Shown here in pieces: positions 21,930 to 51,189 of a stretch of 64,000 nt of DNA (its first letter is position 1; each line of letters opens with the position of its first letter). The notes under the pieces are model-generated. The model saw only the letters and a program-made list of their open reading frames with translations, made no database searches and had not been told where the DNA came from. This stretch comes from Isoetes taiwanensis. Its lineage: Eukaryota > Streptophyta > Lycopodiopsida > Isoetales > Isoetaceae. Position numbers and translations under genes: made by a program. Location: assembly GCA_021234155.1 (NCBI GenBank), contig JAJEKV010000503.1, forward strand, positions 102,640 through 166,639, written 5' to 3'.

Positions 21930-22428
21930 GAAACAATTTAATTGCATAGTCGAGACTAGAATAATATAAATACGACGCAATTAGTGAATTCGACATAAGT
22001 TGTGACACAAATATATCATGTTGTTGCCACAAATGTAGTCATTGTGTCAAGACTAATATGATAGAAAATAGGATGCAATTATTAAACAACTTGGATATAA
22101 GCTCAACGCAAACGTGATATGCAATTGCCACAAATGTAGTCATTGTGTCGAGACTAATATGACAGAAAATATGACGCAATTATTGTATAACTTCGATATA
22201 AGTTCGACACAAACATGCCATGTAATTGCCATAAATATAGTCGTTATGTCATTTTTGCGTTATGTAACCGTGACACAATACTTGACGCAAAAAATGACGC
22301 CCATGCGACATCAAAGTATAGCACTTTTAGCGTCAATCTCGTGACATTTAGTGGGCCTTTGAGGACACGCATAGCGTCACTTTGTTCGACGCTATACCCG
22401 ACGGAAAACACCCTATTCTGTTGTAGTG
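21930..22428 (-). mobile_element. CACTA-type transposon terminus with subterminal repeats
   Basis: The segment ends TTCTGTTGTAGTG at 22428, the reverse complement of CACTACAACAGAA, a typical CACTA terminal inverted repeat. Upstream are about three copies of a 100-105-bp unit (GCCACAAATGTAGTCATTGTGTC) and many GACGCAA/TAGCGTC motifs, as in CACTA subterminal regions. The following GGT could be one copy of a 3-bp target duplication. The other terminus was not found, so the element is either truncated or not fully recognised. Confidence 0.6.
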
Positions 22429-24664
22429 GGTGCACAAAACATATCAAACAGCTGCGTAATTTATCCTTTTAATGCTCAAAATGCCCTAAAATGCTTCACA
22501 AAACTTCGCGTACGCGAAAGAGTAGAAACCGCGTACGCAAAACTGCCTTCGCATACGCGAAACAGTCAAAACAACGTACGTGAAAAGTTTGCCTATTTCG
22601 CGTATGTTGTTTCAACTGCTTTGTGTACGCGAAACTATCTTCGCATACGCGAAATAGTTAAAACAGCGTACGCAAAATAGGCGGATTTTTGCGTACACTA
22701 GTTTAACTGTTTCGCGTACGCGAAGGCAGTTTCACGTACGCAGTTTCTACTCTTTCGCGTACGCGAAATTTTTTCGGTGCCGATTTGTTTTTTGCCATAT
22801 TTTTAACATATTATACTTCAAAAATATGTCGTATCATACTTATCATACGTATTGCATATAAAACGTATGAAGTATTGAACCTATCCCTACTGAGTACTCA
22901 CACCATGCGTGAGAACACCTTTCGACCAAGTCTGGAGCATGATGTGAGTACTGGATCAAACTGGAACCATGTTGACCAAGTTATGTTGTGAATTTGGCCA
23001 ATCTATTGGTCAAATCCGACTCCTTGGACCCCAATTAGGTAGGGTTGCTATATAGAACTTGCTAAAAATGAGTAAAAAGAACAAAACAGTAGTCACTTCT
23101 AGTCGAGTACTCACACCATGTGTGAGAACACCTACTGACCAAGTCAGAACCCTTCCTGGCGCATGCTGTGAGTAGTGGGATTGAAACCTCCCAATAAGAC
23201 TAGAATGTTTAGACCCTACTTATCTAATTGATTCTAATAGTTAGACAACATGAAAATCCCCCTAAGAAACCCTAGAAAATGGTAAACCTATGAATAGGGA
23301 CTGTGATGGGCCTAGCCAGTTAACCTTCTTAGGTAACTGGAGATCCCATCATTCTTGACTATTGGTATTACTTAAGCCTAGAAACTTAAGATACTAGTTC
23401 ATGCATAACTTAAAACAAAACCTTGACATATAGGTAAAGAATTTAATCTTTATTCGGTAATAACCCAAGATCCCAAAAAATACTTCCCACAATTATTATG
23501 AAGGTATATTAATATATCACACATCAAATTTACTATTATTGTTTCAAATCGGTTCTTCTATTGCCAAAGCCTAAATGATGTTAACTCTGCCTCAAACACT
23601 ACTCGCGTCTCTTCGTAGCTCAGCTACACTCCGGAGCCTCTTTCTCATTTGCTTACACCATTAACAATGGGGTTAGTCACAAGGACTAAGTGGGGGTCAG
23701 GCACTAGCGAATGTCTAAGCATCAAAGATAAACAATGCACAATGCAAGAATCAAAAGAGCAATTCTTGTCAATCTTACCATAGGCTCAGCCCTACAATCC
23801 AAGTTAATGAAATAATCCAGCCATGCCAAAATAATATCCATGATCCTTTACATTATAAAACAAACCATTGCGAATCAACTCAGAGACACTAAAAACACTA
23901 ACAAAGCAAAGCAATCATAACAACATAGAATTACAACCAATATTCCTCTGGGTCTGAGCATTGGCCAACTCGGTTGATCGGGGGCGGCATAGAAGCGGGG
24001 GTAACCTCGTGTGTACACACCCTTCCAGCTTGCGTCCGGCATTGGAGGACCACTTATCTTTGTGCAATAACGTTATACCCAAGGGTGTCACGCCCAATGT
24101 CCAAGTATACACTACCATTAACATGTCAACTATGCAATAACCGTGAGTCTAGACCATCGCACCTAGACTCCGGCCCCAAAGGACTATATCACAGAGCATT
24201 TCAAATACTTAAAAAAATAGAGCATATTCCATAATATTCTACCATGGAATCCCAATGTCAACCAAGGTTAATAACAAGCCACCATGCTAAGTCAAAGAAT
24301 TCACAATCCAATGTTGCAATCCTAACATGACAATAGTAAATATAATCCGGAGCCATTAAATCACCAAAATGCTATGACTTTAAGGTCAAACAATGTTTTC
24401 AATTAATTTCTTGGCTAAAGTTGCTAATATTTTATTATGTGGTCTCTTTGGCTTTATCATGCAACCGTGGGTTAACACATAGCTAACACTCTCGAGCCTA
24501 ACTCACCCATACCCCTCGCCTTTATCTATATAGGTTAATAATGGTTCTTTTATGTTACTTATAGAATGTAATTTAAACTAAGAAGAGGAAAGATCATAAA
24601 TTTCATTTAAGTAAAAAAAAAAAGCAACGATGTATTTTATAGCAGACTTCAAAAAAACGTGGAA
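22429..24664 (-). repeat. Palindrome left arm (unit 0, P arm)
   Basis: This arm is the reverse complement of 24792-27040 over about 2.24 kb, with scattered substitutions and small indels. It ends at the CACTA terminus. Only short ORFs are present. It includes the motif CCCACTTAGTCCTTGTG in inverse orientation and, at the outer end, the CGTACG-rich block. Confidence 0.95.
22496..22770. repeat. CGTACG-rich nested palindrome (unit 0)
   Basis: About a dozen variants of TTTCGCGTACGCGAAA spaced by short AT-rich segments. The whole block is itself an imperfect palindrome, with AGAGTAGAAAC at one end and its complement GTTTCTACTCT at the other. CpG density is far above the surroundings. Confidence 0.9.
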
Positions 24665-24791
24665 GCTTCTCGGAATTGGATGGATGGAATTTGTGAGCTC
24701 AATCTAAACCCTGAACCATCGATCTAACTATGACAAAGCTCCAGCAATCACAAGAATTACTATAAACTCAGATCTCAAGCTTAAATCACGT
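24665..24791. other. 127-bp spacer of the long palindrome
   Basis: Non-repeated sequence between the two arms. It carries no gene. Confidence 0.85.
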
Positions 24792-26699
24792 TTCCACGTT
24801 TTTTTGAAGTCTGCTATAAAATACATCGTTGCTTTTTTTTTTTTTACTTAAATGAAATTTATGTTCTTTCCTCTTCTTAGTTTAAATTACATTCTATAAG
24901 TAACATAAAAGAACCATTATTAACCTATATAGATAAAGGCGAGGGGTATGGGTGAGTTAGGCTCGAGAGTGTTAGCTATGTGTTAACCCACGGTTGCATG
25001 ATAAAGCCAAAGAGACCACATAATAAAATATTAGCAACTTTAGCCAAGAAATTAATTGAAAACATTGTTTGACCTTAAAGTCATAGCATTTTGGTGATTT
25101 AATGGCTCCGGATTATATTTACTATTGTCATGTTAGGATTGCAACATTGGATTGTGAATTCTTTGACTTAGCATGGTGGCTTGTTATTAACCTTGGTTGA
25201 CATTGGGATTCCATGGTAGAATATTATGGAATATGCTCTATTTTTTTAAGTATTTGAAATGCTCGTGATATAGTCCTTTTAAATGGAGTCTAGGTGCGAT
25301 GGTCTAGACTCACGGTTATTGCATAGTTGACATGTTAATGGTAGTGTATACTTGGACATTGGGCGCTGACACCCTTTGGGTATAACGTTATTGCACAAAG
25401 TATAAGTGGTCCTCCAATGTTGGACGAGCGTGGAAGGGGTGTGTACACACGAGGTTACCCCGCTTCTATGTCACCTGGCCCCGATCAACCGAAGTTGGCC
25501 AATGCTCGCACCAGAGGAATATTGGTTGTAATTCTATGTTGTTATGATTGCTTTGCTTTGTTAGTGTTTTTAGTGTCTCTGAGTTGATTCGCAATGGTTT
25601 GTTTTATAATGTAAAGGATCATGGATATTATTTTGGCATGGCTGGATTATTTCATTAACTTGGATTGTAGGGCTGAGCCTATGGTAAGATTGACAAGAAT
25701 TGCTCTTTTGATTCTTGCATTGTGCATTGTTTATCTTTGATGCTTAGACATTCGCTAGTGCCTGACCCCCACTTAGTCCTTGTGACTAACCCCATTGTTA
25801 ATGGTGTAAGCAAATGAGAAAGAGGCTCCGGAGTGTAGCTGAGCTACGAAGAGACGCGAGTAGTGTTTGAGGCAGAGTTAACATCATTTAGGCTTTGGCA
25901 ATAGAAGAACCGATTTGAAACAATAATAGTAAATTTGATGTGTGATATATTAATATACCTTCATAATAATTGTGGGAAGTATTTTTTGGGATCTTGGGTT
26001 ATTACCGAATAAAGATTAAATTCTTTACCTATATGTCAAGGTTTTGTTTTAAGTTATGCATGAACTAGTATCTTAAGTTTCTAGGCTTAAGTAATACCAA
26101 TAGTCAAGAATGATGGGATCTCCAGTTACCTAAGAAGGTTAACTGGCTAGGCCCATCACAGTCCCTATTTATAGGTTTACCATTTTCTAGGGTTTCTTAG
26201 GGGGATTTTCATGTTGTCTAACTATTAGAATCAATTAGATAAGTAGGGTCTAAACATTCTAGTCATTGGGAGGTTTCAATCTCACTACTCACAGCATGCG
26301 CCAGGAAGGGTTCTGACTTGGTCAGCAGGTGTTCTCACACATGGTGTGAGTACTCGACTAGAAATGACTACTGTTTTGTTCTTTTTACTCATTTTTAGCA
26401 AGTTCTATATAGCAACCCTACCTAATTGGGGTCCAAGGAGTCGGATTTGACCAATAGATTGGCCAAATTCACAACATAACTTGGTCAACATGGTTCCAGT
26501 TTGATCCAGTACTCACATCATGCTCCAGGAAGGGTTTTGACTTGGTCGAAAGGTGTTCTCACGCATGGTGTGAGTATCAAAGAGGGATAGGTTCAATACT
26601 TCTGACGTTTTATATGCAATACGTATGATAAGTATGATACGGCATATTTTTGAAGTATAAAACGTCAAAAATACGGCAAAAAAGAAATCGGCGCCGAAA

Positions 26700-26972
26700 A
26701 AATTTCGCGTACGCGAAAGAGTAGAAACTGCGTACGTGAAACTGCCTTCGCGTACGCGAAACAGTTAAAATAGCGTACGCAAAAATCCGCCTATTTTGCG
26801 TACACTGTTTTAACTATTTCGCGTATGCGAAGATAGTTTCGCGTACACAAAACAGTTGAAACAACATACGCGAAACAGGCAAACTTTTCACGTATGTTGT
26901 TTTGACTGTTTCGCGTATGCGAAGGCAGTTTTGCGTACGCGGTTTCTACTCTTTCGCGTACGCGAAATTTTG
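26700..26972. repeat. CGTACG-rich nested palindrome (unit 1)
   Basis: Inverted counterpart of 22496-22770 and direct counterpart of 36979-37250. Confidence 0.9.
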
Positions 26973-27419
26973 TGAAGCATTTTAAGGTGGTTTAAGCATT
27001 AAAAAGGTAAATTGCGCAGCTATTTGATCTTTTTTGTGCAGCTGCAATATAATATATAAGGAAAACTCGTTTAACCTAATTTTCACCTCGAACGTTGACC
27101 ACCTGGCTGAGTCAAATATACTCCCTGGAAAACGATCTTCCTTTGAGGTGTGGGATATTGTGTCCGGGCTTGACGTCAGATTCTGCAAAGTGAGTTTTCT
27201 CCTTTCCAGTGTTTCCTGACCTCGGGTTCCCACCCTGCCTCATCCTTAGAGACCTATAGGTTCTTATCCCCCCGCCTCATTGACTCGAACGGAACGTCGA
27301 CGTAACATATGCGTAGTGAGCTTGCTCCTTCCCACATAAACACGTCTTCCTTTAGTTCGTGCAATTGAGGAGTCTGTTGGAGCAGTAGTAGCCGATGGCG
27401 ACAAGCAACCAATGACAAC

Positions 27420-29460
27420 CGCTCATGCATCCACATCAAGGGCTGGTGGCGGTAATGCAAGATCTGCTAAAGGCAGTGGTGCCATGCATGGTCGCAGTCG
27501 GTCGTCCACGAGGGCTACAGGACCATGCAGCGGTCGTTCTCGAAACTTGGGCGGTCGGCAAAGAGGCCCGGAGTGGGAGTTTGTGAAGAGTTTGGTGAGA
27601 ATGAGTGGGAATGTATTTTTTGCGAATACTCGTCTATAAATGGATTTGCCACACGAATACGAGCTCATTTTTTACGAGAAACCTCAGTCGGTGTCCAAAC
27701 TTGTTTTGCATCTCCTGATTTATGAAAAGATGCAGTGGAAAGGTTGTCTCCACTAAATGCGATGCGCAAAACGAAGAACACTAGCGTAAGAACTCATGCA
27801 AGAGACGGAGAAGAGCAAGTCGAAGACGAAACCAATTACATCACCCCTCCTGGCCATTTCTTTGCTGCCCCTTGTACCAAGCGAGGGTGGATTAGGGTCA
27901 GTTGGTGTACGCACGGGTGAGAAAAGAGTGGTTGAAACAATTGAAATAGTGGGAAGACAGACCAAGCAATAAAGGGTCGATCAATGTTTAACGTCAGAGC
28001 AATTAAAAAAGGCACAGCTGAAAGTCGTGGAGGCATTCTTGTATGTCGGACTCTCTCCACATGTATTGGAGCACAAAGCAATGAAAGAAGTTTTCCAAGA
28101 AGTTTCCAAAGCAGGACCAACGTTCAGGTTGCCTTCTTACAAGCATGCAACAACAAGATGGTCGATGAAATACATGGGAAAATGGTCGAGAGGGTAGAGA
28201 TGAAGTTGTGCCGAGTGACTGAAAGTAGGCCAGGATCACTAGTAACCGAAGGTTGGAGCAACGTAAATAAGGACCACCTCATAAACTACATGATTGTATA
28301 TCCAGGTGGCGAAGTGTTCTTGAAAATTGTGGAAACCAAAACTGAGCAACTTCGGACCAAAGAGAAATTTTCAGGTCGTAATGGATAACGCATCTAATTG
28401 TAAGCTGGCAGGTGCATTGTTAGAGTCAGAATTCCCAGGGTTGCATGCCACCAACTGTCAGTGCTATGGTCTGAACCTGGTTCAAAGAGCCTATTCAAAA
28501 AGTGCGGCGTCTAGTGAAGTTCATCACCACAAAGCCGGCAGTATATGCCATCTACAAGTCTTTGCGTTTGAAATCCCTGGCACTCATGAATCCTGGGCAA
28601 ACCCGCTTTGGAACCAATTACATTTGTCTTGAAAGAGTGCTAAGGTGTCGTGATTGGATTATCTCCACCTTTAATCACACTGAAGTTTTTGAGTGGGAGA
28701 GAAGACAACGGGGCAAGAATGCATTTAAACACCGCCAATGAGTCAGTGCCCTCAGGGATATGATTGGGTAGGAGACATTTTGGAGAGGCGTACAAAATGT
28801 TGTGAGGTGCATGCAACCTATCTGTCGTGCCATCAAAACCTTAGATTCTTTGAAGGCAAGCACCGGCAAGGTTTGGAGATGCTGGCACGCAATTCAATCT
28901 TTCTTGCAGCGTGATGGGCCCAATGCACCATTTGATAACGCGAAACACACATTACTCCTGAAGGACCTTGCTGCACGGTGGAAGAAGTCATACAATGACC
29001 TTCATGGCGCTGCTCATGCATTAGACCCGCACAACCATGACATGGACCAGCATACAGACAAGGAAGTAATGGGTTTGTTGAAGAAAGTTGCAAAATTGTA
29101 CTATCCTAATGGGTCAGACTACAAGATGTTCATTGCCGAGCTAACTGAGTATCAAAACCTAAGTGGAAGATGGGCAGATGAAGAACTTCACGATGCATTA
29201 GAGAGTCACAAGAAAGAGGCCCAATATGGAGTCCTATGCATGGTGGCAAGCCCATGGGCAAGTGACCGATATGTTATAGGCCCTAGCAATGACAATCCTC
29301 TCCTTGGTATCGTCAAATATGATGCGGAGAGGAATTGGAGTTCTTATAAGTACATACACAATGTCACTCGAAATTGTGCATTTACATAAGAAAGTTGACA
29401 AACTTGTGTATAGCTTCTCAAATTGGTGACTCTTGAATCGCGAATAATGGGGCAGCAGCA
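27420..29460 (+). pseudogene. hAT-superfamily transposase, decayed (unit 1)
   Basis: Frameshifted reading segments line up in hAT order. First is a BED-type zinc finger (27525-27725, WECIFCEY...RIRAHF...C). Next is a DUF659-like stretch (27984-28388, LVTEGWSNVNKDHLINYM) and VVMDNASNCKLAGALLE (about 28375), then LRLKSLALMNPGQTRFGTNY. The dimerisation end follows with ERNWSSYKYIHNVTRN (about 29320) and the LVYSFSNW remnant. The protein would bind element ends and perform cut-and-paste transposition. Stops and frameshifts between each segment make it inactive as read. No terminal repeats or 8-bp target duplication of a simple hAT element were identified. Confidence 0.85.
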
Positions 29461-30060
29461 GATAAGCTACAATTTCCTTTCTTGGATGTAGATTCCGGCG
29501 GACGAGGAGGTGTAGATTCTCGGTGGGACGATGCCGCAATTCATGCCGACGAGGATATCCGGCGCACCCATTTCATTGACGCATTTAAGATGACGCCGAA
29601 GAACTCATATTCACCGATGACTCGGATGACAATACGTAAGAGGAACCGACCACGAGAGAGCAGGTCCCGGCCACGAGAATGCCGGTGGAGGACTTAACTA
29701 CACGAGAATGAAGTGTTCGACTCTTCATTACTACTGACAGTACCAAACAGATAACGTGGAAAAAGAAACACGTCGAGCGGACGAGGCACTAAGGGAAGGG
29801 GTCATAGGAGGTTGAACCTAGGCGACACTACAGAGGAGGTCGAAACAGATGATGATGATGCAGACACTGAGAACGATGATGAATGAGCATCTATCTACCT
29901 GTAATTTCATTGTTTTGTTAAATGGAATATAAGTTTTACTATTTCAAGAAGTCTCTCATTGTTTGTTTTGTTGTTATTCGTGTTTTTTACTATGTTCATT
30001 TGTCAATCTTTGTGCCCTGAGAACCCTCCCTCTGTCATCATGATCTCGACTTCTGTTTCA
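29461..30060 (+). other. Acidic ORF remnant and AT-rich tail (unit 1)
   Basis: In unit 3 the matching region (39802-40068) keeps an acidic open frame. Here the frame is broken by differences in the same stretch. Nothing else is recognised. Confidence 0.35.
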
Positions 30061-31240
30061 TGTCTGCCCCTTCGCATGGTATAGAATCTTGCCTAGAAGT
30101 AATCTTTGCACGTGAAGGGGCCAAACAGGCACGGACCATTCAAGAGGATGATGAATAGGAGGAGGGTTCACAGGGCACACGATGGACTTTTAAATTCTGA
30201 ACCTTGCTTTCTCCTAGGGGACCATCTCAGGTTTCAAGTTGTGGCAGGGTCGCTGTTTGGTGTGAAATGGCACAGCGGCACCATTTCACACTCAAATGGC
30301 ACAGCTGCGCCATTTCACATCAAATAGCTACCATGTCACAACTTCGAAATAGAGGTTGTCAACTAATTCCAAGTTGTAGTGCCTCTTAAACGTCTACATC
30401 AATTGCGGTAGTTCTATGTGTATCAAAAATACGGCAGACATCCACAAATGATGGAGACGCTCAAGAAGTATTACAGCTTACAATTAGATGACAAACTTCA
30501 TTTCAAAGTTGTGGCAGGACATGTTTGGTGTGAAATGGCATTTCACAGGGCACACGATGGACTTTTAAATATCCGGGTCACTTCTGACTTTGTCTCAACT
30601 GGGTGCTTATTTTTGTCATAGAAATGCTTAATCTTTGGCCATCGGTTGCAGTCAGAGTGTGATGTGCAGCACAACTCCAATGTATTGAACTGATATACAG
30701 TCCTATATATCAGAGTTACACATCATTACACTGCAATGAATGGTCAAAGATTAAGCATCTCTATGAGCTTGAACAAGCACCCAAAAAGGAAAATGCTCAT
30801 GTGCGGCAGTTTGGTTTCCTGAGATGTGTCTAGCATATCAGTTTCCAAATGGAAGCCTCTCATTAGTGTCTCTCATTGTTTGTTTTGTTGTTATTCGTGT
30901 TTTTTACTCAGTTCATTTATCAACCTCATTGCCCTGAGAACCATCCCCCTGTCATCACCGTCTCGACTTCCATTTTCTGTTTGTCCCTTCGCGTGCTATA
31001 GAGTCTTGCTGAGAAGTGATCTTTGCACGTGAAGGGGCCAAACAGGCACGGACCATTCAAGACGACGATGATCAAGACGAGGGTTCACAGGGCACACGAT
31101 CCATGATGGCAAGGTAATTCGAGTAGACTATGAATCGGAATAGGGTTCATCGACCTCAGTGCCCTGAGAACCCTCCCCTACCTTCGCCGTCTCGAATTCC
31201 GTTTCCTGTTTGTCCCTTCGCGTGCTATACATTAGAGGTT
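30060..31240 (+). repeat. Dispersed units of a 230-bp repeat family (unit 1)
   Basis: Blocks with GAAGTAATCTTTGCACGTG, GGCCAAACAGGCACGGACC and GTCCCTTCGCGTGCTATAG occur near 30090, 31005 and 31215. They are related to the tandem array at 45780-46850. Confidence 0.8.
30596..30786. repeat. Hairpin-forming inverted repeat, about 190 bp (unit 1)
   Basis: GGGTGCTTATTTTTG...ATGCTTAATCTTTGGCC pairs with GGTCAAAGATTAAGCAT...CAAGCACCC. The stem is imperfect and long. A copy lies at 40869-41059. It may be a MITE or a small-RNA precursor-like fold. Confidence 0.75.
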
Positions 31241-31488
31241 TGATGGGATCACATAAGGGCCCTAACTCGATGCCAGCTCAAAAAACGCGTAGCCAATACC
31301 TAATTCGGCATGTACAGGCTTTTTTAGCCAGGCCTGGAACTATGGGGGCAGGTGTCGTTCACTCGCAGGTTCGGAAAGATCCGAACGTTTTTTAGTTTCA
31401 GGGTTGGTGGGTTGGTGGGTTGGGGGGAATTATTGCAACTCCATCCCGCCCTCTTTTACCGCCGAAACTTTTGTATTTTTCCCCTGTC

Positions 31489-31496
31489 TATAAAAA
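31489..31496 (+). promoter_or_regulatory. TATA box candidate (unit 1)
   Basis: TATAAAAA in a pyrimidine-rich context, about 140 bp upstream of the ATG that opens the exon-like ORF near 31630. It is conserved in unit 3 at 41762-41769. Confidence 0.4.
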
Positions 31497-31628
31497 CTCT
31501 GTCTTCCTCTCTCGTGCTTTTTGTTATCGCCATTCGCAACTTGTTCGAACTCTACGCCCATGTATTCTTCACAAGCTCGTGATCATTTAGCATTTGATGT
31601 TTTTCTAACCTCTTTTTTTTCCTTTCGG

Positions 31629-32429
31629 ATGTCAATTAGTTCAATCGCGAATTGAAAACGATTGGGGATGCTTCAATGTTTTCATTGGTAGATTCGTTAC
31701 TCTCCAACCTGCTACACGGGTGATTTTTGAGTGAAGCAAAGTAGGAGGAATGATATTTCTACGCATTGGAGGGCCATAGTCGTCAGATCAAATTTCACTG
31801 AACTTTTTCTGAACTGCAGGTGAATTGTGGATAAATTTATTGTCTTTCCTTTCTTTATTGTAATTTCCATTGCTCTAATTGGTACTTTTTTGCTTCCAGG
31901 GCTTTGTATTTCAGATGTGCAGGATATGGAGCCATCGAGCTCCATAATGAGCAGGTTTCATTCTTTTCATTATGATATTGGTTCTCTACTCTTTGAAGGT
32001 CATATAGTTGTGTAACTCAGAAAGAGTGGGGTGTGGTTCTTGTGCTATGAATATTATCACCGGAAGAGCAAGATAGTCGAACTACCTCTGCCTCCTCTCT
32101 ATCAGCTTTACTCGCACGCTATGGATAATACAACAATTATTTTGGCGAAAACGAAGCTGATCCAAGAAATATCTACTGCAATGAGAGACAATGGTGGAGT
32201 ATGTGGGCATGTTAAGGTAAATTTAGCTATAAACATGTTCATTGCATTATTTAAGGATATTGAGGATGTGAAGAAGACTTCGAAGATGTATACAGTGAAT
32301 GATTCTGACATTTGTTTGGACAGGATTTTCTGTGCTGGTTGGTCCAGTAGATTGCATGATGGAAGAGGCTATTTCGCACCATGGCCACGGTGCAAAATTG
32401 GCTCTTTCACAATTGCTGGGAGGCCCTAA
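31629..32429 (+). pseudogene. Unknown multi-exon ORF of the repeat unit (unit 1, 3' end lost)
   Basis: An exon-like ATG segment (about 31629-31722), a short segment (ALYFRCAGYGAIELHNEQ followed by GT) and a longer ORF (32031 onward, WFLCYEYYHRKSKIVELP) are shared with unit 3 and, inverted, with unit 2. The function is not recognised. Here the ORF runs into the hairpin array at 32359, and the first exon has a 1-bp insertion relative to unit 3. Confidence 0.4.
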
Positions 32430-32491
32430 TTCGCACCGTAGCCACGGTGCAATTTTATTTTATTTTATTTTTTCTGCACCTGGCTATGGTG

Positions 32492-32523
<32 letters not shown>

Positions 32524-33086
32524 GAAGGCTAGAACTAGGTAGATATATATTAACTAATTATAAAATGTACAAATAAAAGGCCCCTAAGGAGCATGAGCTA
32601 CAAAGCTCCCGTCTTGAGCTCTAGGCTCTCTTACTAATGCTCACGATTACACCTACTACCTACTGCTCATCCATTGGTGGAGTGATAAAGCCTCCATCTC
32701 CCCTCATCCAGGAGCATTTGAAGTATGCATAGAATCCTTGAACTGCTCCTAGCCGATCAAAGGCTTTGTCATAGGCCCGGCCTGAACTCCTGATGTGTGA
32801 GATAGCCATTAAGGCCACGGCATGGTTAAAGACATTTCTGATTTTGGCCACTGAGATATCTTGAGCATCCAGAGCGACTGAACACCTATGCTTCCAAACC
32901 GCCCAAAGACCAATGCATGTGATGGTGCAATTTAGGGCCTCCCAACAAGTGTGGAAGAGCCAATTTCGCATTGTGGCCACGGTGCGATTTTTTTTTTATT
33001 ATTTTTGCACCGTAGCCACGGTGCAAAATTGGCACTTCCAGAATTTATGGAAGTGCCTATTTCGCACCGCGGGCCACCTGCAATTG

Positions 33087-33118
<32 letters not shown>

Positions 33119-33900
33119 GGATTTTTTTTTTTGCGAAAAAAAAATCAAAAAAAAAATTAAAAAAATTGCACCATGGCTATGGTGCGAAATAGGCACTTTC
33201 ACACTTGTTGGGAGGTCCTAATTTGCACCGTAGCCACTGGGAAAAAAACATTGCACCGTGGCTACGGTGCGAAATTGGCTCTTCCACAATTTATGGAAGT
33301 GTCTATTTCGCACCGTGGCCACGGTGCGAAATAGGCACTTCTATAAATTATGGAAGTGCCTATTTCGCACTGTGGCCACGGTGCGAAATAGGCACTTCCA
33401 TAAGTTGTGGAAGAGTCAATTTCGCGACCGGGCACTTCTGCAAAGTAGGGCCTCCCAAAGCAATTGTGGAAGAGCCAATTTCACACCATAGCCACAATGC
33501 GAAATAGGCACGTCTATAAATTGTTGTAGAGCTGATTTCGCACCGTAGCCACGGTGTGAAATAGGCACCTGCATAAATTGTGCAAGAGCCAATTTTGCAT
33601 CATCCAGTAGGGGACCTTATACAATAACCGGAGGGAAGTCAATGGAACTGAAGAAGAGCTGACCAATATCCACAAAAGACATGTAATGGAGTTGTAAAGA
33701 TCGGTGATCTTCTCTAATTTGCACCGTGGCTACGGTGCGAAAATAACACTTTCATATTTTATGATCTTCACAATTTCGCACCGTGGCGACGGTGCAAAAA
33801 TAACACTTTCATATGTTCTACGCTAATTTGCACAATGGCTACGGTGAAAAACAACACTTTCTTATTTTAGGAACTACACTAATTCGCACTGTGGTGACGC
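32360..33900. repeat. Hairpin array of GCACCGTGGCCACGGTGC palindromes (unit 2)
   Basis: Close to twenty variants of an 18-bp palindrome alternate with a second inverted motif (GGCACTTCCATAAATT and its complement), so the array can fold at several scales. Poly-T and poly-A runs occur at 32495-32523 and 33089-33165. Short ORFs here are repeat translations, not genes. Confidence 0.92.
32498..32921 (-). mobile_element. 5'-truncated LINE-like retrotransposon insertion
   Basis: A 29-nt poly-T run (poly-A on the minus strand) and a 12-bp target duplication ATGGTGCAATTT (32486-32497 and 32922-32933) bound the insert. The minus-strand ORF reads CWEALNCTITCIGLWAVWKHRC, like the region after the reverse transcriptase of plant non-LTR elements. 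The paralogous array at 44130-44160 keeps the uninterrupted site. Confidence 0.85.
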
Positions 33901-34187
33901 TGAGAAATTCAGACTTTATAGACATTCAAGTTACTATGGGATTTGAATCCAGTAAATCCAAGTGTTTTTTTGCACATTATCAAATACAGAAAGAACTATT
34001 GGTGGTAAACAATGTTTTGTCTTATATAGATCTTTCCATCATTTTCTGACTTTTACACCATTTAATAAAAAAGTAAAAAACATTCAGCAGGGCACATTCT
34101 GCCTCAAGTCCACTTAGTTTCTTCCTTGACCTACCTCCATCTTCTGTACTTGAAAGTGATGTAGATAGTTTGTTTTTTAATGCAGTA

Positions 34188-34384
34188 GGGCAAAAGTATG
34201 CTGGTGGAGTGCAAAAGCACGCGTCCGGACGCATGCTTTTAGCACCCCCTATTTGGAAAGTGCTAAAACTTTTGGAAAGTCTTTGGGTGCAAAGTCTTTG
34301 GAAAGTCTTTGAGTGCCGGAAAGTGCCGGTGTCCGGGTGTCTTTGCGTCGCGTTTATTTGTAACCCACCAGCATACTTTTGCCC
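34188..34384. mobile_element. MITE with 20-bp terminal inverted repeats (unit 2 copy)
   Basis: Ends are GGGCAAAAGTATGCTGGTGG and its complement, flanked by AGTA on both sides (34184-34187, 34385-34388). The interior is a minisatellite built on GGAAAGTCTTTG-like words. The counterpart at 42691-42880 has the same ends but a different interior. Confidence 0.85.
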
Positions 34385-34439
34385 AGTACCTAATTCGTGT
34401 GCTCTCTTTCTTTATCCTGCATTCAACGCGTTCTCGTGA

Positions 34440-34980
34440 TTCATGCAATCCATTGGACCAACCAAAGACGAGAAAATCCCTGTCCAAACAAATGTCAGAA
34501 TCATTCACTGTATACATCTTCGAAGTCTTCTTCACATCCTCAATATCCTTAAATAATGCAATGAACATGTTTATAGCTAAATTTACCTTAACATGCCCAC
34601 ATACTCCACCATTGTCTCTCATTGCAGTAGATATTTCTTGGATCAGCTTCGTTTTCGCCAAAATAATTGTTGTATTATCCATAGCGTGCGAGTAAAGCTG
34701 ATAGAGAGGAGGCAGAGGTAGTTCGACTATCTTGCTCTTCCGGTGATAATATTCATAGCACAAGAACCACACCCCACTCTTTCTGAGTTACACAACTATA
34801 TGACCTTCAAAGAGTAGAGAACCAATATCATAATGAAAAGAATGAAACCTGCTCATTATGGAGCTCGATGGCTCCATATCCTGCACATCTGAAATACAAA
34901 GCCCTGGAAGCAAAAAAGTACCAATTAGAGCAATGGAAATTACAATAAAGAAAGGAAAGACAATAAATTTATCCACAATA
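34440..34980 (-). pseudogene. Unknown ORF of the repeat unit (unit 2 copy)
   Basis: Minus-strand copy of the WFLCYEYYHRKSKIVELP ORF, with the short upstream exon-like segment. The MITE follows in the coding direction. The function is unknown. Confidence 0.4.
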
Positions 34981-36978
34981 ACACATAGCTAACACTCTCG
35001 AGCCTAACTCACCCATACCCCTCGCCTTTATCTATATAGGTTAATAATGGTTCTTTTATGTTACTTATAGAATACATAATTGCTTTGAAGTCTGCTATAA
35101 AATACATCGTTGCTTTTTTTTTTTTTACTTAAATGAAATTTATGTTCTTTCCTCTTCTTAGTTTAAATTACATTCTATAAGTAACATAAAAGAACCATTA
35201 TTAACCTATATAGATAAAGGCGAGGGGTATGGGTGAGTTAGGCTCGAGAGTGTTAGCTATGTGTTAACCCACGGTTGCATGATAAAGCCAAAGAGACCAC
35301 ATAATAAAATATTAGCAACTTTAGCCAAGAAATTAATTGAAAACATTGTTTGACCTTAAAGTCATAGCATTTTGGTGATTTAATGGCTCCGGATTATATT
35401 TACTATTGTCATGTTAGGATTGCAACATTGGATTGTGAATTCTTTGACTTAGCATGGTGGCTTGTTATTAACCTTGGTTGACATTGGGATTCCATGGTAG
35501 AATATTATGGAATATGCTCTATTTTTTTAAGTATTTGAAATGCTCTGTGATATAGTCCTTTGGGGCCGGAGTCTAGGTGCGATGGTCTAGACTCACGGTT
35601 ATTGCATAGTTGACATGTTAATGGTAGTGTATACTTGGACATTGGGCGTTGACACCCTTGGGTATAACGTTATTGCACAGTATAAGTGGTCCTCCAATGT
35701 TGGACGCAGCGTGGAAGGGTGTGTACACACGAGGTTACCCCGCTTCTATGCCGCTGGCCTGATCAACCGAGTTGGCCAATGCTCAGACCCAGAGGAATAT
35801 TGGTTGTAATTCTATGTTGTTATGATTGCTTTGCTTTGTTAGTGTTTTTAGTGTCTCTGAGTTGATTCGCAATGGTTTGTTTTATAATGTAAAGGATCAT
35901 GGATATTATTTTGGCATGGCTGGATTATTTCATTAACTTGGATTGTAGGGCTGAGCCTATGGTAAGATTGACAAGAATTGCTCTTTTGATTCTTGCATTG
36001 TGCATTGTTTATCTTTGATGCTTAGACATTCGCTAGTGCCTGACCCCCACTTAGTCCTTGTGACTAACCCCATTGTTAATGGTGTAAGCAAATGAGAAAG
36101 AGGCTCCGGAGTGTAGCTGAGCTACGAAGAGACGCGAGTAGTGTTTGAGGCAGAGTTAACATCATTTAGGCTTTGGCAATAGAAGAACCGATTTGAAACA
36201 ATAATAGTAAATTTGATGTGTGATATATTAATATACCTTCATAATAATTGTGGGAAGTATTTTTTGGGATCTTGGGTTATTACCGAATAAAGATTAAATT
36301 CTTTACCTATATGTCAAGGTTTTGTTTTAAGTTATGCATGAACTAGTATCTTAAGTTTCTAGGCTTAAGTAATACCAATAGTCAAGAATGATGGGATCTC
36401 CAGTTACCTAAGAAGGTTAACTGGCTAGGCCCATCACAGTCCCTATTTATAGGTTTACCATTTTCTAGGGTTTCTTAGGGGGATTTTCATGTTGTCTAAC
36501 TATTAGAATCAATTAGATAAGTAGGGTCTAAACATTCTAGTCATTGGGAGGTTTCAATCTCACTACTCACAGCATGCGCCAGGAAGGGTTCTGACTTGGT
36601 CAGCAGGTGTTCTCACACATGGTGTGAGTACTCGACTAGAAATGACTACTGTTTTGTTCTTTTTACTCATTTTTAGCAAGTTCTATATAGCAACCCTACC
36701 TAATTGGGGTCCAAGGAGTCGGATTTGACCAATAGATTGGCCAAATTCACAACATAACTTGGTCAACATGGTTCCAGTTTGATCCAGTACTCACATCATG
36801 CTCCAGGAAGGGTTTTGACTTGGTCGAAAGGTGTTCTCACGCATGGTGTGAGTACTCAGTAGGGATAGGTTCAATACTTCATACGTTTTATATGCAATAC
36901 GTATGATAAGTATGATACGACATATTTTTGAAGTATAATATGTTAAAAATACGGCAAAAAACAAATCGGCACCGAAAA

Positions 36979-37250
36979 AATTTCACGTACGCGAAAGAGT
37001 AGAAACTGCGTACGTGAAACTGCCTTCGCGTACGCGAAACAGTTAAAATAGCGTACGCAAAAATCCGCCTATTTTGCGTACACTGTTTTAACTATTTCGC
37101 GTATGCGAAGATAGTTTCGCGTACACAAAACAGTTGAAACAACATACGCGAAACAGGCAAACTTTTCACGTATGTTGTTTTGACTGTTTCGCGTATGCGA
37201 AGGCAGTTTTGCGTACGCGGTTTCTACTCTTTCGCGTACGCGAAGTTTTG
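36979..37250. repeat. CGTACG-rich nested palindrome (unit 3)
   Basis: Almost identical to 26700-26972. It holds many TTCGCGTACGCGAA variants arranged as an imperfect palindrome. Confidence 0.9.
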
Positions 37251-37699
37251 TGAAGCATTTTAGGGCATTTTGAGCATTAAAAAGATAAATTGCGTAGCTG
37301 TTTGATATGTTTTGTGCACCTGCAATATAATATATAAGAAAAACTCATTTAACCTAATTTTCACCTCGAACGTCGACCACCTGGTTGAGTTAAATATACT
37401 CCCTGGGAAACGGTCTTCCTTTGAGGTGTGGGATATTGTGTCCGGTCTTGACGTCAAATTCTGCAAAGCGAGTTTTCTCCTTCCCAGTGTTTTCTGACCT
37501 CGGGTTCCCACCCTGCCTCATCCTTAGAGACCTATAGGTTCTTGTCCCCCCACCTCATTGACTCGAATGAAACGTCGACGTAACATATGCGTAGTGAGCT
37601 TGCTCCTTCGCACATAAACACGTCTTCCTTTAGTTCGTGCAATTGAGGAGTCTGTTGGAACAGAAGTAGTAGCCAGTGGCAGCAAGCAACCAATGACAA

Positions 37700-39706
37700 C
37701 CGCTCATGCATCCACATCAAGGGCTGGTGGCGGTAATGCAAGATCTGCTAAAGGCAGTGGTGCCATGCATGGTCGCAGTCGGTCGTCCACGAGGGCTACA
37801 GGACCATGCAGCGGTCGTTCTCGAAACTTGGGCGGTCGGCAAAGAGGCCCGGAGTGGGAGTTTGTGAAGAGTTTGGTGAGAATGAGTGGGAATGTATTTT
37901 TTGCGAATACTCGTCTATAAATGGATTTGCCACACGAATACGAGCTCATTTTTTACGAGAAACCTCAGTCGGTGTCCAAACTTGTTTTGCATCTCCTGAT
38001 TTATGAAAAGATGCAGTGGAAAGGTTGTCTCCACTAAATGCGATGCGCAAAACGAAGAACACTAGCAGAAGAACTCATGCAAGAGACGGAGAAGAGCAAG
38101 TCGAAGACGAAACCAATTACATCACCCCTCCTGCTGTTGCTGCTCCCTTGTACCAAGCAGAGGGTGGATTAGGGTCAGTTGGTGTACGCACGGGTGAGAA
38201 AAGAGTGGTTGAAACAATTGAAATAGTGGGAAGACAGACCAAGCAATAAAGGGTCGATCAATGTTTAACGTCAGAGCAATTAAAAAAGGCACAGCTGAAA
38301 GTCGTGGAGGCATTCTTGTATGTCGGACTCTCTCCACATGTATTGGAGCACAAAGCAATGAAAGAAGTTTTCCAAGAAGTTTCCAAAGCAGGACCAACGT
38401 TCAGGTTGCCTTCTTACAAGCATGCAACAACAAGATGGTCGATGAAATACATGGGAAAATGGTCGAGAGGGTAGAGATGAAGTTGTGCCGAGTGACTGAA
38501 AGTAGGCCAGGATCACTAGTAACCGAAGGTTGGAGCAACGTAAATAAGGACCACCTCATAAACTACATGATTGTATATCCAGGTGGCGAAGTGTTCTTGA
38601 AAATTGTGGAAACCAAAACTGAGCAACTTCGGACCAAAGAGAAATTTTCAGGTCGTAATGGATAACGCATCTAATTTTAAGCTGGCAGGTGCAATGTTAG
38701 AGTTAGAATTCCCAGGGTTGCATGCCACCAACTGTCAGTGCTATGGTCTGAACCTGGTTCAAAGAGCCTATTCAGAAAGCGCGGTGTTTGGTGAAGTTCA
38801 TCACCACAAAGCTGGCAGTATATGCCATCTACAAGTCTTTGCGTTTCAAATCCCTAGCACTCATGAATCCTGGGCAAACCACGCTTTGGAACCAATTACA
38901 TTTGTCTTGAAAGAGTGCTAAGGTGTCGTGATTGGATTATCTCCATCTTTAATCACACTGAAGTTTTTGAATGGGAGAGAAGACAAAAGGGCAAGAATGC
39001 ATTCAAACACCGTCAACAAGCCAGTGCCCTCGAGGATATGATTGGGCGGGAGACATTTTGGAGAGGCATACAGAATGTTGTGAGATGCATGTAACCTATA
39101 TGTCATGCCATCAAAACCCTAGATTCTTCGGAGGCAAGCACTGGCAAGGTTTGGAGATGCTGGCACTCAATTCAATCTTTCTTGCAACGTGATGGGCCCA
39201 ATGCACCCTTAAATAATGCGAAGCGCACATTACTCCTGAAGGAACTTACTGCACGGTGGAAGAAGCCATACAATAACCTTCATGGCGCTGCTCATGCATT
39301 ACACCCGCACAACCATGACATGGACCAGCATACAAACAAGGAAGTAATGGGTTCGTTGAAGAAAGTTGCAAAACTCTACTATCCTAATGGGTCAGACTAC
39401 AAGATGTTTATTGCCAAGCTAACTGAGTATCAAAACCTAAGTGGAAGATGGGCAGATGAAGAACTTCATGATGCATTGGAGAGTCATAAGAAAGAGCACA
39501 ATATGGAGTCCTATGCATGGTGGCAAGCCCATGGGCAAGTGACCGATATGTTATAGGCCCTAGCAATGACAATCCTCTCCTTGGTATCGTCAAATAGTGC
39601 GAGCGAGAGGAATTGGAGTTCTTATAAGTACATACACAATGTCACTCGAAATTGTCTGTTACATAAGAAAGTTGACAAACTTGTGTATAGCTTCTCAAAT
39701 TGGTGA
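37700..39706 (+). pseudogene. hAT-superfamily transposase, decayed (unit 3)
   Basis: Same order as in unit 1: BED-type zinc finger 37806-38006 (identical in translation), DUF659-like 38261-38665, VVMDNASN about 38655, RWKKPYNNLHGAAHAL about 39250. The C-terminal hAT dimerisation region is SYAWWQAHGQVTDM, then ERNWSSYKYIHNVTRN, then LVYSFSNW (39510-39706). This copy keeps the WWQAHG motif that is frameshifted in unit 1. Frameshifts and a stop after TDML still prevent a full protein. Confidence 0.87.
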
Positions 39707-39801
39707 CTCTTGAATCGCAACAGTGGGGCAGCAGCAGATAAGCTACAATTTCCTTTCTTGGATGTAGATTCTGAAGTGGACGAGGAGGTGTAGATTCTGA
39801 A

Positions 39802-40068
39802 GTGGACGATGCCGCAATTCATGCCGACGAGGATATCCGGCGCACCCATTTCATTGACGACGAAGATGACGTCGAAGAACTCATATTCACTGATGACTCA
39901 GATGACAATACAGAAGAGGAATCCGACACAGAGAGAGCAGGTCCCGTCAATACGAGAATGCCAGTGGAGGACTTAACTACACAGAATGAAGTGTTCCTCT
40001 TCATTACTACTGACAGTACCAAACAGATAACGTGGAAAAAGAAACACGTCGAGCGGACGAGGCACTAA
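39802..40068 (+). CDS. Acidic C-terminal ORF following the transposase
   Basis: The open frame is rich in Asp/Glu (DDEDDVEELIFTDDSDD) and ends in a basic stretch (TWKKKHVERTRH). It may be the former acidic tail of the hAT protein, detached by a stop near 39790. Unit 1 has the same DNA with frame-breaking differences. Confidence 0.35.
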   Translation: MDDAAIHADEDIRRTHFIDDEDDVEELIFTDDSDDNTEEESDTERAGPVNTRMPVEDLTTQNEVFLFITTDSTKQITWKKKHVERTRH

Positions 40069-40339
40069 GGGAAGGGGTCATAGGAGGTTGAACCTAGGCG
40101 ACACTACAGAGGAGGTCGAAACAGATGATGATGATGCAGACACTGAGAACGATGATGAATGAGCATCTATCTACCTGTAATTTCATTGTTTTGTTAAATG
40201 GAATATAAGTTTTACTATTTCAAGAAGTCTCTCATTGTTTGTTTTGTTGTTATTCGTGTTTTTTACTATGTTCATTTGTCAATCTTTGTGCCCTGAGAAC
40301 CCTCCCTCTGTCATCATGATCTCGACTTCTGTTTCATGT

Positions 40340-41510
40340 CTGCCCCTTCGCATGGTATAGAATCTTGCCTAGAAGTAATCTTTGCACGTGAAGTGGCCAA
40401 ACAGGCACGGACCATTCAAGAGGATGATGAATAGGAGGAGGGTTCACAGGGCACACGATGGACTTTTAAATTCTGAACCTTGCTTTCTCCTAGGGGACCA
40501 TCTCAGGTTTCAAGTTGTGGCAGGGTCGCTGTTTGGTGTGAAATGGCACAGCGGCACCATTTCACACTCAAATGGCACAGCTGCGCCATTTCACATCAAA
40601 TAGCTACCATGTCACAACTTCGAAATAGAGGTTGTCAACTAATTCCAAGTTGTAGTGCCTCTTAAACGTCTACATCAATTGCGGTAGTTCTATGTGTATC
40701 AAAAATACGGCAGACATCCACAAATGATGGAGACGCTCAAGAAGTATTACAGCTTACAATTAGATGACAAACTTCATTTCAAAGTTGTGGCAGGACATGT
40801 TTGGTGTGAAATGGCATTTCACAGGGCACACGATGGACTTTTAAATATCGGGTCACCGACTTTTGTCTCAACTGGGTGCTTATTTTTGTCATAGAAATGC
40901 TTAATCTTTGGCCATCGGTTGCAGTCAGAGTGTGATGTGCAGCACAACTCCAATGTATTGAACTGATATACAGTCCTATATATCAGAGTTACACATCATT
41001 ACACTGCAATGAATGGTCAAAGATTAAGCATCTCTATGAGCTTGAACAAGCACCCAAAAAGGAAAATGCTCATGTGCGGCAGTTTGGTTTCCTGAGATGT
41101 GTCTAGCATATCAGTTTCCAAATGGAAGCCTCTCATTAGTGTCTCTCATTGTTTGTTTTGTTGTTATTCGTGTTTTTTACTCAGTTCATTTATCAACCTC
41201 ATTGCCCTGAGAACCATCCCCCTGTCATCACCGTCTCGACTTCCATTTTCTGTTTGTCCCTTCGCGTGCTATAGAGTCTTGCTGAGAAGTGATCTTTGCA
41301 CGTGAAGGGGCCAAACAGGCACGGACCATTCAAGACGACGATGATCAAGACGAGGGTTCACAGGGCACACGATCCATGATGGCAAGGTAATTCGAGTAGA
41401 CTATGAATCGGAATAGGGTTCATCGACCTCAGTGCCCTGAGAACCCTCCCCTACCTTCGCCGTCTCGAATTCCGTTTCCTGTTTGTCCCTTCGCGTGCTA
41501 TACATTAGAG
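40340..41510 (+). repeat. Dispersed 230-bp repeat family units (unit 3)
   Basis: Direct counterpart of 30060-31240, nearly identical. It includes the 190-bp hairpin at 40869-41059. Confidence 0.8.
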
Positions 41511-41761
41511 GTTTGATGGGATCACATAAGGGCCCTAACTCGATGCCAGCTCAAAAAACGCGTAGCCAATACCTAATTCGGCATGTACAGGCTTTTTTAG
41601 CCAGGCCTGGAACTATGGGGGCAGGTGTCGTTCACTCGCAGGTTCGGAAAGATCCGAACGTTTTTTAGTTTCAGGGTTGGTGGGTTGGTGGGTTGGGGGG
41701 AATTATTGCAACTCCATCCCGCCCTCTTTTACCGCCGAAACTTTTGTATTTTTCCCCTATC

Positions 41762-41769
41762 TATAAAAA
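41762..41769 (+). promoter_or_regulatory. TATA box candidate (unit 3)
   Basis: TATAAAAA upstream of the ATG at 41905. Same context as at 31489. Confidence 0.4.
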
Positions 41770-41904
41770 CTCTGTCTTCCTCTCTCGTGCTTTTTGTTAT
41801 CGCCATTCGCAACTTGTTCGAACTCTACGCCCATGTATTCTTCACAAGCTCCGTGATCATTTAGCATTTGATGTTTTTCTAACCTCTTCTTTTTTTCCTT
41901 TCAG

Positions 41905-43046
41905 ATGTCAATTAGTTCAATCGCAATTGAAAACGATTGGGGATGCTTCAATGTTTTCATTGGTAGATTCGTTACTCTCCAACCTGCTACACGGGTGATT
42001 TTTGAGTGAAGCAAAGTAGGAGGAATGATATTTCTGCGCATTGGAGGGCCATAGTCGTCAGATCAAATTTCACTGAACTTTTTCTGAACTGCAGGTGAAT
42101 TGTGGATAAATTTATTGTCTTTCCTTTCTTTATTGTAATTTCCATTGCTCTAATTGGTACTTTTTTGCTTCCAGGGCTTTGTATTTCAGATGTGCAGGAT
42201 ATGGAGCCATCGAGCTCCATAATGAGCAGGTTTCATTCTTTTCATTATGATATTGGTTCTCTACTCTTTGAAGGTCATATAGTTGTGTAACTCAGAAAGA
42301 GTGGGGTGTGGTTCTTGTGCTATGAATATTATCACCGGAAGAGCAAGATAGTCGAACTACCTCTGCCTCCTCTCTATCAGCTTTACTCGCACGCTATGGA
42401 TAATACAACAATTATTTTGGCGAAAACGAAGCTGATCCAAGAAATATCTACTGCAATGAGAGACAATGGTGGAGTATGTGGGCATGTTAAGGTAAATTTA
42501 GCTATAAACATGTTCATTGCATTATTTAAGGATATTGAGGATGTGAAGAAGACTTCGAAGATGTATACAGTGAATGATTCTGACATTTGTTTGGACAGGA
42601 TTTTCTGTGCTGGTTGGTCCAGTAGATTGCATGAATCTGTCGAGAACGTTGAATGCAGGATAAAGAAAGAGAGCACACGAATTAGGTACTGGGCAAAAGT
42701 ATGCTGGTGGGTTACAAATAAACGCGACGCAGCACCCAGCACCCAGCACTTTCCAGCACCCAGCACTTTCCAGCACTTTGCACCCAACACTTTCCAGCAG
42801 TTTTTAGCACTTTCCAGCAGGGGTGCTAAAAGCATGCGTCCGGACGCGTGCTTTTGCACTCCACCAGCATACTTTTGCCCTACTGCATTAAAAAACAAAC
42901 TATCTACATCACTTTCAAGTACAGAAGATGGAGGTAGGTCAAGGAAGAAACTAAGTGGACTTGAGGCAGAATGTGCCCTGCTGAATGTTTTTTACTTTTT
43001 TATTAAATGGTGTAAAAGTCAGAAAATGATGGAAAGATCTATATAA
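41905..43046 (+). CDS. Unknown multi-exon gene of the repeat unit (fullest copy)
   Basis: The ATG at 41905, directly after TTCAG, opens MSISSIAIENDWGCF up to a GT at 41995. A short exon-like piece ALYFRCAGYGAIELHNEQ lies near 42175-42230, and a 246-codon ORF starts before 42306 (WFLCYEYYHRKSKIVELP, TKLIQEISTAM, VNLAINMFIALFKDIED). The phase between the pieces is not settled. A 190-bp MITE (42691-42880) is inserted in the last ORF and is read through in frame. No known domain was recognised. Three copies in the window share it, which argues that it belonged to the amplified unit. Confidence 0.4.
42691..42880. mobile_element. MITE with 20-bp terminal inverted repeats (unit 3 copy)
   Basis: Same 20-bp ends as at 34188-34384, flanked by TACT on both sides. 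The interior is built of CAGCACTTTCC/CAGCACCC words, unlike the other copy. Confidence 0.85.
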
Positions 43047-43139
43047 GACAAAACATTGTTTACCACCAATAGTTCTTTCTGTATTTGATAATGTGCAAAA
43101 AAACACTTGGATTTACTGGATTCAAATCCCATAGTAACT

Positions 43140-44450
43140 TGAATGTCTATAAAGTCTGAATTTCTCAGCGTCACCACAGTGCGAATTAGTGTAGTTCCTA
43201 AAATAAGAAAGTGTTGTTTTTCACCGTAGCCATTGTGCAAATTAGCGTAGAACATATGAAAGTGTTATTTTTGCACCGTCGCCACGGTGCGAAATTGTGA
43301 AGATCATAAAATATGAAAGTGTTATTTTCGCACCGTAGCCACGGTGCAAATTAGAGAAGATCACCGATCTTTACAACTCCATTACATGTCTTTTGTGGAT
43401 ATTGGTCAGCTCTTCTTCAGTTCCATTGACTTCCCTCCGGTTATTGTATAAGGTCCCCTACTGGATGATGCAAAATTGGCTCTTGCACAATTTATGCAGG
43501 TGCCTATTTCACACCGTGGCTACGGTGCGAAATCAGCTCTACAACAATTTATAGACGTGCCTATTTCGCATTGTGGCTATGGTGTGAAATTGGCTCTTCC
43601 ACAATTGCTGGGAGGCCCTACTTTGCACCGTGGCCACGGTGCGAAATTGACTCTTCCACAACTTATGGAAGTGCCTATTTTCAAGACCGTGGGTAATGAT
43701 CTTAGCCAGGCACTTCCATAATTTATAGAAGTGCCTATTTCGCACCGTGGCCACGGTGCGAAATAGACACTTCCATAAATTGTGGAAGAGCCAATTTCGC
43801 ACCGTAGCCACGGTGCAATGTTTTTTTCCCAGTGGCTACGGTGCAAATTAGGACCTCCCAACAAGTGTGAAAGTGCCTATTTCGCACCATAGCCATGGTG
43901 CAATTTTTTTAATTTTTTTTTTGATTTTTTTTTCGCAAAAAAAAAAATCCAAAAAAAAAAAAAAATAAAAATAAAAAAAAATTGCACCGTGGCCACGGGT
44001 GAAATAGGCACTTCCATAAATTCTGGAAGTGCCAATTTTGCACCGTGGCTACGGTGCAAAAATAATAAAAAAAAAATCGCACCGTGGCCACAATGCGAAA
44101 TTGGCTCTTCCACACTTGTTGGGAGGCCCTAAATTGCACCATAGCCAGGTGCAGAAAAAATAAAATAAAATAAAATTGCACCGTGGCTACGGTGCGAATT
44201 AGGGCCTCCCAGCAATTGTGAAAGAGCCAATTTTGCACCGTGGCCATGGTGCGAAATAGCCTCTTCCATAGATCGTGGAAGTGCCTATTTCGCACTCGAA
44301 ATAGGCACTTCCACGATCTATGGAAGAGGCTATTTCGCACCATGGCCACGGTGCAAAATTGGCTCTTTCACAATTGCTGGGAGGCCCTAATTCGCACCGT
44401 AGCCATAGTGCGGTAAAAAAATCATGGCCATGGTGCGAAATTGGGTTGTT
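43140..44450. repeat. Hairpin array of GCACCGTGGCCACGGTGC palindromes (unit 3)
   Basis: Reverse complement of the unit 2 array without the LINE-like insert. Near 44160-44440 the array is itself folded back around GCACTCGAAATAGGC. Not coding. Confidence 0.92.
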
Positions 44451-48525: not shown

Positions 48526-48552
48526 GTCATAACCATTTGCCTTTTACTTCTG

Positions 48553-50195: not shown

Positions 50196-50336
50196 GTCGT
50201 CATATCTAAAAAACGAACGATCATCAAATATAATATCTATAGAATAAAAAAACAAACAAACAAAAAAGGAAACAAACAAAAAACAAACAAAAAATGGCTC
50301 CATACTGATTCATTTGCAGGAGATTTGCTCAATCAA

Positions 50337-51188: not shown

Positions 51189-51189
51189 T

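What the first reader, a model, noticed from the sequence alone, without database searches (positions are those of the whole stretch)
22429..44450. Two head-to-head dimers of a large hAT-containing unit
Read as P-A-B units, the region is unit 0(-)/unit 1(+) and unit 2(-)/unit 3(+), each pair joined at the P ends. Unit 0 is cut at a CACTA terminus, unit 1 lacks B, unit 2 lacks most of P and A, and unit 3 is nearly whole. This suggests a mobile or amplifying inverted dimer of about 19 kb that later duplicated in tandem and lost parts. I know of no named element with this layout, though I could not search.
Basis: partly seen in the sequence, partly recalled or inferred. Interest (0 to 1): 0.75.

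Follow-up and report, generated by a model that had tools for sequence, protein, structure and literature searches.

The report
Local inverted duplications of nested transposons
A stretch of plant-like DNA holding a large cut-and-paste transposon and its neighbouring DNA was copied several times in alternating orientation at one place; it looks like a scar of local DNA breakage and repair rather than a new kind of mobile element.

Summary
The layout is real: four partial copies in order -,+,-,+, joined head-to-head (about 24.7 and 35.08 kb) and tail-to-tail (32,359/32,360). The reading as a mobile inverted dimer is not supported. "P" is about 1.78 kb of flank, found only in this contig, plus the first ~460 bp of a large hAT element. 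The P|A "boundary" is only where a CACTA end truncates copy 0. "A" is the hAT body. "B" is part of a second dispersed element (J), nested in the hAT. These families also occur elsewhere apart from one another. The junctions are not at hAT ends; they look like fold-back and end-joining scars: a 127-bp spacer found once, 1-bp microhomologies, a 10-bp filler, and a breakpoint 26 bp from the centre of a 234-bp palindrome. A repeated head-to-head junction in a -,+,-,+ series is what two rounds of fold-back/breakage-fusion-bridge would leave (inference). A LINE-like insert with a 12-bp target duplication in copy 2 alone argues that this copy is physical DNA. Differences between copies are tightly clustered, partly consensus-error-like and partly conversion-like. 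The window ends where a 166.6-kb contig ends, so assembly error is not excluded.

The parts
22130..22428 (-). terminal part of a CACTA-type element that truncates unit 0
   Evidence: of 39 other scored copies 38 stop at query 297-304 (window 22426-22433) and one at 324; CACTACAACAG terminus; its other end was not found in the window plus the 10 kb to the left; class name recalled from the terminus
22429..24664 (-). unit 0: flank plus first ~460 bp of hAT, inverted
24665..24791 (.). spacer of head-to-head junction H1, 127 bp, found once in the genome
24792..32359 (+). unit 1: flank, hAT 5' part, start of nested J
25193..26162 (+). LTR-like stretch inside the flank (also in units 0 and 3)
   Evidence: dispersed at about 72%; one relative has two direct copies about 4 kb apart
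26582..31229 (+). hAT element 5' part in unit 1, with transposase remnants and part of the ~229-bp repeat array
32360..35073 (-). unit 2: inverted part of J (reverse of 44268 to 42099), then flank piece 35266 to 35172; 6.8 kb between them missing
32498..32921 (-). LINE-like insert with T-run and 12-bp target duplication (32486-32497 and 32922-32933)
   Evidence: two other copies at 100% over query 56-486 and 61-486; class recalled, no Pfam family above cut-off
35074..35083 (.). 10-bp filler at head-to-head junction H2
35084..64000 (+). unit 3: flank 35084-36859, then hAT from 36860 to beyond the contig end, with nested J and further insertions
   Evidence: a C1059 copy carries both halves in order
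42690..42881 (.). MITE inside J (approximate limits)
44178..44411 (.). palindrome centred at 44294.5, 26 bp from the copy-2 breakpoint 44268

Best explanation
A local inverted-duplication complex, not a mobile element. One locus (flank, then a large hAT carrying nested element J) was broken in the flank; the end folded back and was copied, giving a head-to-head dimer around a 127-bp spacer (inferred). A second fusion joined two such arms tail-to-tail inside J, beside a 234-bp palindrome, giving -,+,-,+ with the head junction repeated, as two breakage-fusion-bridge-type rounds would (inferred). What the sequence shows directly are differences between copies that point to later changes: copy 2 lacks 6.8 kb and carries a LINE-like insert, the second head junction lacks the spacer and has a 10-bp filler, and copy 0 ends at a CACTA terminus. 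Gene conversion between copies probably homogenised parts of them (inferred).
For: Order -,+,-,+. H1 and H2 begin within 11 bp of the same flank base on the units 1 and 3 side. Spacer found once. 1-bp microhomologies at T and at the copy-2 deletion, 10-bp filler at H2. T breakpoint 26 bp from the palindrome centre. No junction at the hAT terminus, which units 1 and 3 both cross. Flank only here. LINE-like insert with 12-bp target duplication in copy 2, site empty in unit 3. Fold-back duplications with single-copy spacers: PMC3907307 (abstract and passages).
Against: Spacer of 127 bp is shorter than the 766-70,466 bp reported for human fold-back cases. H2 is not identical to H1 and could be an independent event. 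No A or J of unit 0 is found in C222, so the left arm is unseen. No unrearranged allele is available. Small contig ending at the window edge and consensus-error-like clusters leave assembly error open.
Confidence: 0.6

Rival explanations
1. Replication-based inverted triplication (ODIRA, or MMBIR/FoSTeS template switching): units 1(+), 2(-), 3(+) arose in one replication accident at short inverted repeats; unit 0 in another.
For: +,-,+ with junctions at or near inverted repeats; loss of a palindrome arm after such events is described in PMC4689423 (abstract, section 9); microhomology and filler.
Against: Does not by itself give unit 0 with nearly the same head junction; arm loss in that paper used short repeats, here 1 bp.
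Confidence: 0.17
2. Assembly or consensus artefact: one or more copies are misjoined or duplicated by the assembler.
For: Contig of 166,639 bp ends at the window edge; clustered, partly indel-rich differences; copy-2 MITE differs from unit 3 and 4 of 4 other copies in a repeated pattern.
Against: LINE-like insert with target duplication in copy 2 only, CACTA end and 11-bp deletion in copy 0 only, 127-bp asymmetric spacer at H1.
Confidence: 0.15
3. Alternative transposition of hAT ends (sister-chromatid or reversed-ends type) made the inverted copies.
For: A hAT lies in every full copy; Ac/Ds alternative transposition makes duplications, and sister-chromatid transposition flanking inverted duplications (PMC3744419, abstract and passages).
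Against: Breakpoints are 1.78 kb outside the hAT 5' end or inside J, without 8-bp duplications.
Confidence: 0.05
4. A mobile or amplifying inverted dimer of a P-A-B unit.
For: Two head-to-head pairs in tandem.
Against: Flank, centre and full-length P found only in C222; components dispersed apart; the P end is a CACTA truncation.
Confidence: 0.02

Closest known systems
Fold-back inverted duplications / breakage-fusion-bridge products (PMC3907307)
   Same: Inverted copies around a single-copy spacer; serial inverted copies expected from bridge cycles
   Different: Kilobase scale and a 127-bp spacer against 766-70,466 bp; built of nested transposons
ODIRA / DUP-TRP-INV-DUP inverted triplications (PMC4689423)
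   Same: +,-,+ copies and a shortened palindrome arm
   Different: A fourth, inverted copy shares the head junction; no origin or plasmid stage tested
Ac/Ds (hAT) alternative-transposition duplications (PMC3744419)
   Same: Duplicated DNA beside a hAT element in a plant
   Different: Breakpoints here are not at hAT ends and show no 8-bp duplication

Membership tests
hAT superfamily (the A part) | terminal inverted repeat shared by dispersed copies | tested here: met
   CAGGGATAGGTTCAATA-type start; both ends in C908 and L017 copies; window copy has its left end only (TAGGG)
hAT superfamily (the A part) | 8-bp target-site duplication | tested here: met
   2 of 2 relatives whose both ends were compared: ACTCTATA, GAGGAGGG; not testable for the window copy, right end off the contig
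hAT superfamily (the A part) | hAT transposase domains | tested here: met
   DUF659 in two relatives, 3.3e-27 and 2.8e-24; in the window ORF only 0.00022, below the cut-off; DUF659-hAT link recalled; no hAT dimerisation domain was seen
Mobile inverted dimer | whole unit at more than one locus | tested here: not met
Mobile inverted dimer | target-site duplication around the unit | tested here: not met
   left limit is a CACTA end, unit 3 continues to the contig end: no unit ends to flank
Breakage-fusion-bridge / fold-back | inverted copies with repeated head-to-head junction | tested here: met
   H2 lacks the spacer
Breakage-fusion-bridge / fold-back | dicentric bridge and terminal loss | not testable with these tools
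   needs the chromosome and relatives
Ac/Ds-type alternative transposition | breakpoints at transposon ends with 8-bp duplication | tested here: not met
[quoted passage not shown]
   palindrome near T; ancestral flank at H1/H2 unknown

The most novel reading that the evidence does not exclude
A kilobase-scale fossil of plant breakage-fusion-bridge amplification, seeded by a palindrome carried inside a nested transposon and then kept alike by gene conversion between inverted arms, so that hairpin-rich elements act as triggers of local inverted amplification in this genome.
Probability: 0.15. Interest if true: 0.5.

Novelty: new member of a known kind. Interest (0 to 1): 0.3.

Why it matters
It shows how nested transposons plus local inverted duplication can imitate a composite mobile element, and it gives base-level junctions of a multi-step inverted rearrangement in a plant-like genome. 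If the palindrome in J seeded the break, one could ask genome-wide whether such hairpin-rich elements mark inverted duplications.

Tried and rejected
P as a palindromic or foldback transposon: first favoured because matches of the A query began at its bases 3-8, but that query was cut at 27041, so the edge was my own artefact. The query runs up to that edge and its main matches start at 404-414, i.e. near 26583; C1082 carries both sides side by side.

The outer inverted pair 3912-6911 / 57770-60758, centred near the T junction, as a mirror arm: rejected. They are two ~3.0-kb Helitron-like copies (TC start, hairpin, CTAGT end; features recalled) in different flanks.

Import of the diverged copy-1/copy-3 patch 28400-29100 from another hAT: rows covering it outside C222 are 71-78% (40 of 786 candidates scored; short rows up to 85% lie outside the patch), so no donor was seen. 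In that patch copy 1 keeps the family state at 23 sites, copy 3 at 23, 6 undecided (six relatives).

Clustering tests dropped sites within 8 columns of an indel and, in the three-copy test, sites with three states. Neighbouring differences may be single events, which inflates the clustering. They cannot tell gene conversion from mixed consensus.

Nanopore/methylation error as the cause of the copy-2 MITE pattern: a paper search with five terms returned 0 papers, so it stays a suspicion.

Element J: no target duplication seen at its window ends; no right inverted end was recognised in the three extended relatives; class unresolved; no Pfam family above cut-off.

Full report
WHAT IS THERE. Self-alignment confirms the layout. 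Unit 0(-) 22429-24664; spacer 24665-24791 (127 bp); unit 1(+) 24792-32359; unit 2(-) 32360-35073; 10-bp filler 35074-35083; unit 3(+) from 35084. Copy 2 is the reverse of 44268 (or 44269; one base is ambiguous) to 42099, then jumps over 35267-42098 to flank bases 35266-35172, and carries an insert at 32498-32921.

WHAT P, A AND B ARE. The window is G000:C222:102640-166639, the last 64 kb of a 166,639-bp contig in a 1.66-Gb genome. The flank start with the P-P centre (24640-25185) matches C222 only: 4 rows, 2 of 2 candidates scored. Full-length P is matched in 3 rows, all C222; most other rows are an LTR-like stretch (query 391-1360, about 72%; 40 of 2666 candidates scored). One relative has two direct copies of that stretch about 4 kb apart. 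The last ~460 bp of P are the 5' end of a hAT: the main matches outside C222 start at query 404-414 of 26170-27042 (40 of 1540 candidates scored). Two relatives whose both ends were compared have inverted ends and 8-bp target duplications: 9,883 bp in C908 (ACTCTATA) and 714 bp in L017 (GAGGAGGG). Relatives' ORFs carry DUF659 at 3.3e-27 and 2.8e-24; the window ORF scores below the cut-off. The A region has long matches at 71-78% elsewhere (57 rows, 40 of 786 candidates scored). The unit-3 hAT begins at 36860 and is still matched at 63042-64000 (69%), so its right end is off the contig.

B is the middle of a second dispersed element, J, nested in the hAT's ~229-bp array at about 41503-45860. 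A C1059 copy carries both halves in order. Its inverted ends CATTAGAGGTTTG are seen in the window. J contains a MITE (other copies 81-98%) and a core of GCACCGTGGCCACGGTGC hairpin repeats with a 234-bp palindrome centred at 44294.5 (107 of 109 inner pairs).

The left limit 22428 is a CACTA terminus: of 39 other scored copies 38 stop at query 297-304, one at 324. So the P|A boundary is only where copy 0 is truncated.

JUNCTIONS. H1: inverted arms around a 127-bp spacer found once. T: 42634(+) to 44268(-), 1-bp microhomology, 26 bp from the palindrome centre; because of the palindrome a plus-strand match at 44321 also exists, but copy 2 continues on the reverse strand to 42099. Copy-2 deletion: 1-bp microhomology. 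H2: 10-bp filler; on the unit-3 side it begins 11 bp from the H1 arm start. None of these is at the hAT terminus, which units 1 and 3 both cross.

HISTORY (inference). Head junctions at nearly the same base in a -,+,-,+ series suggest one head-to-head event later repeated by a tail-to-tail join, as two breakage-fusion-bridge-type rounds or a repeated fold-back dimer would give. Fold-back copies around single-copy spacers are described in PMC3907307 (abstract and passages; spacers there 766-70,466 bp, longer than here). Loss of a palindrome arm after inverted amplification is described in PMC4689423 (abstract, section 9). Ac/Ds alternative transposition can also make duplications, with breakpoints at element ends and 8-bp duplications (PMC3744419, abstract and passages), not seen here.

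IS IT REAL DNA? For: the LINE-like insert in copy 2 has a 12-bp target duplication, the unit-3 site is empty, and two other copies match at 100%; copy 0 alone has the CACTA end and an 11-bp deletion. Against: the contig is small and ends here; the copy-2 MITE departs from unit 3 and from 4 of 4 other copies in a repeated pattern; each of copies 0, 1 and 3 has private differences in one patch at 35562-35786; copy 1 has several indels against the family at 29100-29700. So percent identities understate the likeness in places.

MOSAIC. Copies 1 and 3 share tracts without substitutions (longest gap 1,142 columns) beside dense patches. Of 133 substitutions away from indels 97 are transitions; empty 100-bp windows: 46 observed, 12.3 expected, at most 23 in 2,000 simulations; longest simulated gap 640. 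Over the P copies 47 two-state sites (28 with copy 1 odd, 16 with copy 0 odd, 3 with copy 3 odd) fall in 16 runs, shuffled mean 25.7, P 0.0012. In the J overlap copies 1 and 3 do not differ at all over 536 bases, while copy 2 differs at 12 columns, all within columns 501-528. Gene conversion is the simplest biological cause; mixed consensus is the technical one.

VERDICT. This is a local rearrangement of ordinary nested transposons. I do not claim that such structures are absent from print; papers were looked for (listings), and three were opened.

Noticed in passing
3912-6911 and 57770-60758: Two ~3.0-kb Helitron-like copies, 96.5% identical, in opposite orientation; elsewhere the two halves of the query mostly match separately, split near base 1742.
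   Followed up: partly
54535-56018 and 60749-62174: Direct repeat of about 1.45 kb (93.7%); the second copy has a Helitron-like element at its left edge, where the first copy shows the uninterrupted site.
   Followed up: partly
7919-8975 and 9308-10352: Direct repeats of about 1.05 kb at 95%, with an inner period of about 300 bp.
   Followed up: no
L004:1186-1980: The 9.9-kb hAT relative in C908 holds, on the strand opposite to the transposase, a 265-aa open frame with a RING-finger-like end (zf-RING_2 1.1e-4, below its cut-off); the region has a weak match near 48046-48300 of the window.
   Followed up: no
34185-34405: The MITE in copy 2 differs from unit 3 and four other genome copies in a repeated CAG-to-AAAG-like way, perhaps a consensus error.
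   Followed up: partly
6929-7111: Piece similar to the 3' part of the C908 hAT (72%), just right of a Helitron-like copy.
   Followed up: no
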